In this document: one piece after another, positions 42,473 through 44,110 of the stretch
How the letters are laid out: each line of letters begins with the position of its first letter
Position numbering within the stretch: position 1 is the stretch's first letter
Assembly (NCBI GenBank): GCA_028821605.1
Contig: JAPPFM010000017.1
Location: 1 to 64,000 of the forward strand
DNA from: Candidatus Poribacteria bacterium
GTDB taxonomy: Bacteria; Poribacteria; WGA-4E; WGA-3G
Length of the DNA stretch: 64,000 nt
Reading direction: 5' to 3'
Notes under the pieces: generated by a model
Database searches by the model: none
Told to the model about the DNA's origin: nothing
The model's input: only the letters and a program-made list of their open reading frames with translations
Program-made: the position numbers and the translations under genes

Positions 42473-42919
42473 TCATTCTGAGATATACGAGGTCTTATCT
42501 GTGGATGTCGCGCTCTCTGCGCCTTCATATTTCGAGGCGCATTTCGTCATGAGTTTGGTAGCGACAACGAGGTTCTGTGTTGCATCGTATTTACCTTCTA
42601 CGAAAACGCTACCACCGTCTTTGAAATTGTCCGGTTTAAGCTGATTCTCGTAAATTATATTGACTGTTGCCTCGGTTTCGCGGTCGCGGACAGCGAAGGT
42701 GAGTTTAAAATTAGCAGCGTCCCATTTGGAACTATCCTCTGCAATGAGTCCATCAACTTGGACCCGTTGATCGTTCACTTCGCTACCAGCTTCCACAAGC
42801 AAAGCAGGCGTGAAATGCCGTATACTCGTGCTTCGAGTCATGGCTATTACCAAAAACGCCATACCACTTAGCAAAATGACACTCGCGACGATCACTTTGA
42901 ATCTTTTCTGTTTTTGCAC
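42473..42919 (-). CDS. ccmE: Cytochrome c maturation haem chaperone CcmE, CxxxY variant
   Basis: A 148-residue OB-fold haem chaperone anchored by an N-terminal helix (VIVASVILLSGMAFLVIAM). The fold is evident from VQVDGLIAEDSSKWDAANFKLTFAVRD, VNIIYENQLKPDNFKDGGSVFVEG and TKLMTKCASKYEG. In most bacteria the haem attaches to His in HxxxY; here the motif is CASKY (Cys127, Tyr131), the cysteine form known from archaea and some sulphate reducers. The start is GTG at 42919, with GGGGGG about 9 nt upstream. It is first of the ccm row and divergent from the aldolase cluster. Confidence 0.9.
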   Translation of the reverse strand: MQKQKRFKVIVASVILLSGMAFLVIAMTRSTSIRHFTPALLVEAGSEVNDQRVQVDGLIAEDSSKWDAANFKLTFAVRDRETEATVNIIYENQLKPDNFKDGGSVFVEGKYDATQNLVVATKLMTKCASKYEGAESATSTDKTSYISE

Positions 42920-42996
42920 CTGAACATCCCCCCATTAATGCGAATCAGTAGGCGCGATTTTTAAGCGTACTGATGAGATAAAACCTTCTCTTTAAA

Positions 42997-43025
42997 ATAA
43001 TACTTGATTTTACACTCAAAATCAA
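42997..43025 (-). promoter_or_regulatory. Promoter for the ccmE-ccmF-ccmH row
   Basis: Minus strand: TTGATT (43020-43025), 17-nt spacer, TATTAT (42997-43002). The -35 hexamer lies in the right arm of the palindrome 43002-43027, and the facing plus-strand promoter has its -35 in the left arm. Confidence 0.5.
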
Positions 43026-43027
43026 GT
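43002..43027. promoter_or_regulatory. Palindromic operator candidate between divergent promoters
   Basis: Perfect 10-bp arms ACTTGATTTT (43002-43011) and AAAATCAAGT (43018-43027) with spacer ACACTC. Both arms contain a -35-like TTGATT for opposite strands, so a bound dimeric regulator could shut off both directions. Whether it is a real operator or a by-product of two overlapping promoters is not decidable by eye. Confidence 0.45.
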
Positions 43028-43033
43028 TAAAAT
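43004..43033 (+). promoter_or_regulatory. Promoter for the aldolase/Gfo-Idh-MocA cluster
   Basis: TTGATT (43004-43009), 18-nt spacer, TAAAAT (43028-43033). The predicted leader of ~120 nt contains the 11-bp hairpin at 43115-43150. Confidence 0.45.
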
Positions 43034-43114
43034 AGAATTAAATTGGAAAATCGTGTGGAATCCTACGTAGTAATACGCTTTGTGAAATCTTCAAGCAAGT
43101 TACAAACGAAAGGG

Positions 43115-43150
43115 GAGATTTGTGAGAATTTTCGGTTTTTCACAAATCTC
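43115..43150 (+). promoter_or_regulatory. 11-bp leader hairpin upstream of the DHDPS-family gene
   Basis: Arms GAGATTTGTGA (43115-43125) and TCACAAATCTC (43140-43150) are perfectly complementary with a 14-nt loop. The hairpin ends 12 nt before the ATG at 43163 and would influence translation initiation. It is AT-rich and followed only by TTT, so an intrinsic terminator is less likely. Confidence 0.55.
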
Positions 43151-43162
43151 TTTGCGAGAAAT

Positions 43163-44110
43163 ATGGAACTGAATTGGCAACACCATCCATGGGCGGGTGT
43201 TTTTCCAGCGACACTCTGTCCCTTTCATGAAGATGAATCAATTGACGAAACTGGATTGCATCAGTATATGCAGGAGCTTGCGAGTGTTCCGGGGATAAAA
43301 GGCGTTGTCTGTAACGGGCACACCGGCGAAATCATGTCTCTCCGATTGCATGAAAGACAACAGGTTACGCGGGTGACCGCTGAGGCTGTTGGCGACAGCG
43401 TTAAAGTTGTTTCGGGAGTTAGCGCGGAAGGAAGCCTTCCAGCAATTGACGATGCACTCGCTGCGAAGGAAGCGGGAGCAGATGCTATCCTGTTGATGCC
43501 TGCACATCATTGGTTGCGTTTTGGAAGGACACCTGAAACGGCAGTCGGTTTCTTTCAAGATGTCGCCGAAGGTGCGGACATACCGATTATTGTTCACCAA
43601 TATCCCGCATGGACGAAAGCAGGATATAGTCTTGAAGAGATGTTAGAGATGGTGAAAATTCCGCAGGTTGTCTGCATTAAAATGGGCACCCGCGATATGG
43701 CGCGCTGGCGATGGGATTATGAACAACTGAAAGAAGCCGCGCCGGATGTCCCGATCTTGACATGTCATGATGAATATCTGCTCGCTTCGCTACTGGAAGG
43801 CAGTGATGGCGCACTCATCGGGTTTGCAGGATTTGTTCCTGAGCTGATGGTTGATGTCGTGCACGCCGCGCTCAATAACGATCTTATCGGTGCACGCAAA
43901 GCGCGCAGTCAGGTGGATTCATTGGCACGAATCGTCTACAATTTCGGAGAACCGAGCAGTGATGCCCACCAACGGATGAAGTGTGCACGTTGGTTGATGG
44001 GAAGATTCCCCTCAATGACAATGCGCCGACCCCTGCGTCAATTGTCCACAACCGAAATAGACAAAATCCGAGCAAGTCTTGAAGCAACCGGCTATCAGTG
44101 CGTTCACTAA
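43163..44110 (+). CDS. Dihydrodipicolinate synthase (DapA) family aldolase
   Basis: A 315-residue TIM-barrel lyase of the DHDPS/N-acetylneuraminate lyase family, which forms a Schiff base between a catalytic Lys and a 2-oxoacid. Visible features are GVVCNGHTGEIMSLRLHERQQV, corresponding to the GTTGE pyruvate-binding block, Tyr in PIIVHQYP and the catalytic Lys in VVCIKMGTRD. The block NGHTGE, not GTTGE, is common in homologues outside lysine synthesis, so this may be a catabolic aldolase. I place the start at ATG 43163; the frame is open upstream, but that part lies in the leader hairpin. It begins a four-gene row. Confidence 0.85.
   Translation: MELNWQHHPWAGVFPATLCPFHEDESIDETGLHQYMQELASVPGIKGVVCNGHTGEIMSLRLHERQQVTRVTAEAVGDSVKVVSGVSAEGSLPAIDDALAAKEAGADAILLMPAHHWLRFGRTPETAVGFFQDVAEGADIPIIVHQYPAWTKAGYSLEEMLEMVKIPQVVCIKMGTRDMARWRWDYEQLKEAAPDVPILTCHDEYLLASLLEGSDGALIGFAGFVPELMVDVVHAALNNDLIGARKARSQVDSLARIVYNFGEPSSDAHQRMKCARWLMGRFPSMTMRRPLRQLSTTEIDKIRASLEATGYQCVH

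What the first reader, a model, noticed from the sequence alone, without database searches (positions are those of the whole stretch)
42997..43162. Palindromic divergent promoter plus an 11-bp leader hairpin between ccmE and the aldolase cluster
A perfect 10-bp palindrome carries the -35 hexamers of two facing promoters, which would let one dimeric regulator act on both directions. The plus-strand leader also has a perfect 11-bp hairpin ending 12 nt before the start codon, suggesting control at translation.
Basis: seen in the sequence. Interest (0 to 1): 0.55.

Follow-up and report, generated by a model that had tools for sequence, protein, structure and literature searches.

The report
Interlocked divergent promoters beside ccmE
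In Poribacteria, two predicted promoters that point in opposite directions share one almost unchanged 39-base stretch of DNA beside a cytochrome-assembly gene; the arrangement is real and conserved, but it fits a known kind of overlapping promoter, and no special link between the two flanking genes was found.

Summary
Both features are real. The inverted repeat 43002-43027 (10-bp arms, 6-bp centre) holds the -35 hexamers of two overlapping divergent sigma70-like promoters: plus TTGATT-18-TAAAAT, minus TTGATT-17-TATTAT. It is present in 36 of 36 genus genomes (35 perfect), and the pair as a whole once per genome in 52 of 58 family genomes. In these, 42995-43033 is nearly invariant except its centre, while the flanks drift. 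In the sister genus the perfect symmetry is broken in 15 of 15 copies, yet both promoters persist. The pair goes with ccmE: in 6 of 15 sister-genus copies the right-hand gene is not the aldolase, and G072 (aldolase, no ccmE found) lacks it. That weakens 'one regulator for ccmE and aldolase'; a dimeric regulator is neither shown nor excluded. The leader hairpin is supported as an RNA structure (96% of cells paired, compensatory changes) that pairs the strong Shine-Dalgarno; it was found at this locus in 14 of 38 genus genomes. Best reading: mutually exclusive RNA polymerase binding at an interlocked promoter pair, plus a lineage-restricted SD-pairing leader. New member of a known kind; modest interest.

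The parts
42995..43033 (.). 39-bp conserved block: two interlocked overlapping divergent promoters
   Evidence: Mean identity 0.98 and 0.99 on the two sides of the 6-bp centre in 52 genomes, against 0.56 and 0.64 in the flanks; exactly one copy in 52 of 58 family genomes
43002..43027 (.). Inverted repeat ACTTGATTTT-N6-AAAATCAAGT; invariant arms in the genus, variable centre
43004..43009 (+). -35 hexamer TTGATT of the aldolase-side promoter
   Evidence: position 43008 is T in 37 of 37 genus copies, C in 13 and A in 2 of 15 sister-genus copies
43028..43033 (+). -10 hexamer TAAAAT of the aldolase-side promoter (spacer 18)
   Evidence: each position kept in 51 or 52 of 52; TTGAY-N17-19-TAWAAT occurs 351 times in G000 against 29 for the reversed control
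43020..43025 (-). -35 hexamer TTGATT of the ccmE-side promoter
   Evidence: invariant in 52 of 52
42997..43002 (-). -10 hexamer TATTAT of the ccmE-side promoter (spacer 17)
   Evidence: TATCAT in 2 of 52, otherwise invariant
42473..42919 (-). ccmE (cytochrome c maturation), GTG start, first gene of the leftward ccm group
   Evidence: Pfam PF03100, 8.1e-19, above its cut-off; NCBIfam CcmE models match below their cut-offs
43163..44110 (+). DHDPS-family aldolase/lyase, first gene of the rightward group (substrate unknown)
   Evidence: Pfam PF00701, 3.3e-34; all 7 NCBIfam matches below their cut-offs
43109..43153 (+). Leader RNA structure: outer helix 43109-43113/43149-43153 (pairs AAAGG of the Shine-Dalgarno region) and inner helix 43119-43128/43137-43146
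   Evidence: 13 leaders: 96.4% of 194 cells paired, 10 cells changed on both sides, 0 of 500 shuffles reach either value, slid versions 45-59% paired; structure predicted on the same alignment
43111..43118 (+). Strong Shine-Dalgarno AGGGGAGA at the 5' base of the hairpin
   Evidence: -8.3 kcal/mol with anti-SD, against -3.0 for the best site next to the ATG
43122..43172 (+). Possible short leader ORF (GTG, 16 codons) overlapping the aldolase start; frame not conserved
   Evidence: in 10 of 13 hairpin leaders the ORF has 8-16 codons and ends within 15 nt of the presumed start; in L008 and L009 it runs on for 35 and 37 codons, and in L039 it is in frame with the aldolase

Best explanation
The block 42995-43033 is an overlapping divergent promoter pair in which each promoter's -35 lies in the other's spacer. 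RNA polymerase can bind in only one orientation at a time, firing left into the ccm genes or right into whichever gene lies there (the aldolase here). The dyad is mainly the visible trace of two identical -35 elements placed symmetrically. It belongs to ccmE rather than to a ccmE-aldolase partnership. Shown: sequence, conservation, linkage to ccmE. Inferred: that both promoters fire, and that they exclude each other. In some species, this one included, the aldolase mRNA leader also folds into a hairpin that pairs its strong Shine-Dalgarno and so should lower translation until it opens (structure supported by covariation; effect on translation inferred).
For: 52 of 58 family genomes carry exactly one copy of the pair. 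Conservation falls off close to the outer edges of the two -10s. The spacers keep their lengths in the copies compared, with a one-base loss inside one -10 (G069). In G000 TTGAY-N17-19-TAWAAT occurs 351 times against 29 reversed controls, and TTGAYTTT-N14-16-TAWAAT 36 against 0, so these hexamers and the TTT after the -35 are ordinary promoter sequence in this organism. In 6 of 15 sister-genus copies another gene lies to the right; G072 has the aldolase, no ccmE found and no pair, and in G071 none of the three was found. The leader hairpin has compensatory changes. Steric exclusion of opposing polymerases at promoters that share DNA is described in PMC12825309 (passages and Introduction read).
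Against: No transcript start is mapped, so neither promoter is proven active. Positions outside the hexamers (43003, 43010-43011, 43018-43019, 43026-43027) are 94-100% conserved, more than hexamers strictly need, which leaves room for a bound protein. The 15 sister-genus copies were chosen by a pattern allowing two mismatches, so their identity is inflated; of the 37 genus copies, 36 came through their aldolase neighbour. The scan's best-scoring plus-strand site was a different one. In PMC12825309 basal activity at all five bidirectional promoters tested was too low for competition, so exclusion may matter little.
Confidence: 0.7

Rival explanations
1. The dyad is the operator of an unidentified dimeric regulator that covers both -35 elements and shuts (or orients) both promoters together. 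It is compatible with the promoter pair.
For: Arms invariant in 35 of 36 genus genomes while the 6-bp centre takes nine forms; positions outside the hexamers 94-100% conserved; one site per genome, as for a dedicated operator.
Against: 15 of 15 sister-genus copies have C or A at 43008 without a matching change at 43021; TTGAYTTT is itself a common promoter element here; of nine neighbouring ORFs given to Pfam none matched a regulator family, one having no match at all; a single site leaves no regulon from which to infer one.
Confidence: 0.3
2. Only the ccmE promoter is functional; the plus-side hexamers persist as an upstream AT-rich element of the ccmE promoter, and the aldolase is read from elsewhere.
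For: The block follows ccmE, not the aldolase; the minus -35 is invariant (52 of 52) while the plus -35 varies at 43008.
Against: Each plus -10 position is kept in 51 or 52 of 52 at 18 bp; G061 of a third genus keeps TTGACT-18-TAAAAT before the aldolase without the minus promoter (read by eye).
Confidence: 0.15
3. The leader hairpin is a split ribosome-binding site: it brings the upstream Shine-Dalgarno close to the ATG and so helps translation, as in phage T4 genes 25 and 38.
For: In 13 of 13 aligned hairpin leaders the site 5' of the hairpin binds anti-SD better than the one next to the start (-4.6 to -8.9 against +0.6 to -4.2 kcal/mol); in 5 leaders without the hairpin a Shine-Dalgarno (-5.3 to -7.1) sits directly before a GTG start. 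Precedent: PMC3014915 (passages).
Against: The conserved outer helix pairs the Shine-Dalgarno itself. Weak sites next to the ATG also occur in leaders without the hairpin, for instance +0.3 in L020, L021 and L023, and the eroded hairpin of L031 has the stronger site near the ATG (-4.2 against -3.5).
Confidence: 0.2
4. The dyad is a chance inverted repeat.
For: Four such repeats occur in the window against 0.77 expected, so single cases mean little.
Against: Conservation in 52 genomes.
Confidence: 0.01

Closest known systems
Bidirectional promoters of E. coli (PMC12825309; passages and Introduction read)
   Same: One short pseudo-symmetric DNA stretch can start transcription both ways and hold one RNA polymerase at a time
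   Different: Those share the -10 element, with starts most often 18, also 10 or 23, bp apart; here the -35s interlock, the -10s are on the outside, and the predicted starts are about 50 bp apart
Overlapping divergent promoters with a common operator, such as E. coli bioA/bioB with BirA (recalled; the search listed no paper on it)
   Same: Divergent overlapping promoters over a dyad
   Different: No regulator identified here; symmetry not kept in the sister genus
SoxR/MerR-type promoters (PMC12825309, passages)
   Same: A regulator can sit within a shared divergent promoter region
   Different: Spacers here are 18 and 17 bp, not over-long
T4 gene 25/38 split ribosome-binding site (PMC3014915, passages)
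   Same: Hairpin between Shine-Dalgarno and start codon
   Different: Here the Shine-Dalgarno is itself paired

Membership tests
Overlapping divergent sigma70-type promoters | A -35/-10 pair with 16-18 bp spacing on each strand, sharing the same DNA | tested here: met
Overlapping divergent sigma70-type promoters | Transcription starts in both directions | not testable with these tools
   No RNA data
Bidirectional promoter (definition in PMC12825309) | Starts either side of or within one shared -10 element | tested here: not met
   The -10s lie apart, at 42997-43002 and 43028-43033
Dimeric-regulator operator | Dyad symmetry conserved across orthologous sites | tested here: inconclusive
   Kept in the genus, broken at 43008 in 15 of 15 sister-genus copies
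Dimeric-regulator operator | A cognate regulator binds | not testable with these tools
   No candidate identified
MerR-type promoter | Over-long spacer (19-20 bp, recalled; 19 bp for soxS in PMC12825309) with the dyad inside | tested here: not met
   Spacers 18 and 17
SD-sequestering leader hairpin | Conserved pairing that covers the Shine-Dalgarno | tested here: met
   Outer helix 92.3% paired in 13 leaders, 3 of 5 pairs with changes on both sides; the structure was predicted on the same alignment, and the leaders were chosen because they show the hairpin
SD-sequestering leader hairpin | Opening the hairpin raises translation | not testable with these tools
   Needs a reporter
Known Rfam families | Match to a covariance model | tested here: not met
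   No match in the window at gathering scores or in 42900-43250 at E up to 1
T4-type split ribosome-binding site | Free SD 5' of the hairpin, brought to 5-11 nt from the start | tested here: inconclusive
   The position fits, but the Shine-Dalgarno is paired in the conserved structure

The most novel reading that the evidence does not exclude
A distinct class of bidirectional promoter that interlocks through its -35 elements rather than sharing a -10, kept for the sake of ccm expression across a bacterial family, with the dyad also serving a dedicated single-site dimeric regulator that sets which way RNA polymerase faces.
Probability: 0.15. Interest if true: 0.55.

Novelty: new member of a known kind. 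Interest (0 to 1): 0.36.

Why it matters
It is a deeply sampled natural case (52 genomes) for asking whether steric competition between interlocked promoters is used in regulation, in a little-studied phylum. It also warns that a perfect dyad between two genes can be the sum of two -35 elements rather than proof of a shared regulator.

Tried and rejected
A regulon of the dyad: the core GATTTT-N6-AAAATC has 5 sites in G000 (reversed control 1) and sites in 49 of 60 genomes (list truncated); I did not trace these to genes, so a wider regulon is not excluded for a degenerate site. The sites in G000 with 2-3 mismatches are three copies of one repeat and one site that looks coding (read by eye). 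Rfam: nothing. A conserved leader peptide: the frame differs between the window and its two nearest relatives, so it is not claimed. The same promoter outside the family: upstream of ccmE in 13 of 14 order-level genomes (G047 had no ccmE match; G046's is in pieces) no interlocked pair was scored; only sites beginning TTG with 16-18-bp spacing were considered, and L216 and L217 had separate promoter-like sites. In several of these another gene seems to lie close upstream of ccmE; it resembles hemD from recall, not translated or tested. Papers: bioA/BirA promoters, -35-sharing promoters (one paper listed, not read), ccm promoters (4 listed, none read) and Poribacteria promoters (10 of 33 listed) gave nothing on this arrangement in titles or abstract starts; this is no proof that it is unpublished.

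Full report
Observation. The sequence is as described. The inverted repeat 43002-43027 has two perfect 10-bp arms around a 6-bp centre. Its arms hold TTGATT on each strand, each followed at 18 (+) or 17 (-) bp by a -10-like hexamer on the far side, so the two promoters occupy the same DNA and point away from each other. The scan's best plus-strand score went to another site, TTTACA-18-TAGAAT (10 of 12 against 9), which I set aside because its bases vary between relatives. The leader hairpin is perfect over 11 bp at its base and ends 12 nt before the ATG at 43163. In shuffled intergenic sequence a perfect 10-bp repeat appears in 19 of 3000 and two in 0 of 5000; the whole window holds 4 such centres against 0.77 expected, so the repeat alone is not proof. 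The interlocked geometry occurs once in the window and in 0 of 100 shuffles.

Host and genes. Left: ccmE, then ccmF and ccmH (Pfam). Right: a DHDPS-family enzyme and three GFO/IDH/MocA-family oxidoreductases. No NCBIfam cut-off was reached by the five proteins tried, CcmE included, so the aldolase's substrate is unknown.

Conservation of the dyad. Of 60 genomes searched with up to two mismatches, the 36 of the genus all have it (35 perfect, G033 with one mismatch); of the 24 others one (G040) has a two-mismatch site and the rest none. Further matches in the genus genomes carry two mismatches. A longer pattern covering both promoters, two mismatches allowed, finds exactly one copy in 52 of 58 family genomes: 37 of 38 in the genus, 15 of 18 in sister genus g19, 0 of 2 in g18. 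The six without it: G080 (contig begins inside the aldolase, no ccmE found), G065 (aldolase and ccmE on separate contigs; 122 bases before the aldolase; the region before ccmE was not examined), G071 (neither gene found; aldolase threshold 1e-60), G072 (aldolase, no ccmE found), G060 and G061 (g18, ccmE present).

What is conserved. Over these 52 copies, 42995-43011 and 43018-43033 average 0.98 and 0.99 identity, the centre 0.71, and the flanks 0.56 and 0.64. Of the genus copies, 36 of 37 came through their aldolase neighbour; the 15 of g19 were picked by the pattern, which inflates their identity. The sister genus has C (13) or A (2) at 43008 where the genus has T (37 of 37), while the symmetric partner 43021 never changes. 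Thus both -35s persist but the perfect symmetry does not. This fits promoter constraint better than a strict two-fold operator, though it does not exclude one: positions outside the hexamers are 94-100% conserved. In G000, TTGAY-N17-19-TAWAAT occurs 351 times against 29 for the reversed control, and TTGAYTTT-N14-16-TAWAAT 36 against 0, so these elements look like this organism's ordinary promoters.

Which gene owns it. In g19, 8 of 15 copies have the aldolase start 264-401 bp from the ccmE start, and in G063 the aldolase is the first plus-strand ORF of at least 100 aa, 0.9 kb from the promoter. In the other 6 that first ORF is an HD-domain protein followed by an AIR-synthase-like gene (G064, G066, G075), an SNF2-type helicase (G067), or a CotH-ankyrin protein (G073, G076) (Pfam for G066, G067 and G073; the others by likeness of the printed sequences). 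Whether those 6 have the aldolase elsewhere was not searched. ccmE adjoined the site in 15 of 15. G072 keeps the aldolase without a ccmE match and lacks the pair. The element therefore follows ccmE. In 13 other genomes of the order no interlocked pair was scored upstream of ccmE.

Leader hairpin. Thirteen genus leaders chosen because they show the hairpin were aligned. The RNAalifold structure is paired in 96.4% of 194 cells, with 10 cells changed on both sides; 0 of 500 shuffles reach either value, and slid versions give 45-59% paired. Shuffles do not correct for relatedness, and the structure comes from the same alignment. The 14-pair stem drawn from the window alone does less well (84.4%). 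The outer helix pairs the AAAGG of the upstream Shine-Dalgarno region. A covariance model finds the structure at this locus in 14 of 38 genus genomes, 13 of them its own training rows; the only other match at E up to 0.1 was weak and off-locus (G023, E 0.07); 135 candidates were scored per genome. Among 34 further loci it also gives a faint match at the leader of L032 (E 0.083). On a tree of 36 genus aldolase genes with 3 outgroup rows the hairpin label needs 8 changes, at least 5 forced by well-supported branches, and lies in several separate branches; an ancestral hairpin lost repeatedly is the simplest reading, though the direction of change is not tested (labels assigned by eye; L050 left out as truncated). 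Ten leaders carry a repeat-like insertion instead, and in five the aldolase starts directly at a GTG. In 13 of 13 aligned hairpin leaders the site 5' of the hairpin binds anti-SD better than the one next to the start, but weak sites near the start also occur in leaders with the insertion.

Mechanism. Shown: a single, ccmE-linked, strongly conserved block with two interlocked promoter sequences; an RNA hairpin with compensatory change in some species. Inferred: both promoters fire; polymerases exclude each other; the hairpin lowers aldolase translation. Open: any regulator.

Known kinds. E. coli bidirectional promoters are defined by a shared -10, with starts most often 18, also 10 or 23, bp apart (PMC12825309, passages and Introduction read); this site fails that test, with predicted starts about 50 bp apart (taking 7 bp from -10 to start). 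It is best called an overlapping divergent promoter pair. T4 genes 25 and 38 give a precedent for hairpins between Shine-Dalgarno and start (PMC3014915, passages), but here the Shine-Dalgarno is paired.

Verdict. Observation confirmed; interpretation partly supported; a new member of a known kind with good comparative support and modest interest.

Noticed in passing
L004, L005, L006 around 1250-1660 (G000 contigs C58, C8, C44); also L145 (G005): A repeat of about 410-480 bp, 85-87% alike between the three copies, in L004 with a promoter-like TTGATT-17-TATGAT followed by a strongly folding unit (-40.9 kcal/mol for 110 nt); no Rfam match up to E 1 and no tRNA. A possible multi-copy small RNA or mobile element.
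   Followed up: partly
L080, L082, L085, L087-L092 and L170, just downstream of the plus promoter: These sister-genus copies, which precede the aldolase, carry a perfect 12-bp palindrome ACGGAATTCCGT; it is absent from the printed stretches of L177 and L180, where the right-hand gene differs (read by eye). A candidate operator of the aldolase.
   Followed up: no
L010, L016, L017, L020, L021, L023, L024, L028, L030, L033 upstream of the aldolase: A repeat-like insertion (TTGTCAGTTATCAG... to ...GATAGCC, read by eye) stands where other leaders have the hairpin; it looks like a small non-autonomous mobile element.
   Followed up: no
window 42944-42974: A second inverted repeat (10 bp, 90%) in the ccmE leader; conservation not measured.
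   Followed up: no
L209 (G049 ccmE): The ccmE match in G049 reads through one in-frame TGA.
   Followed up: no
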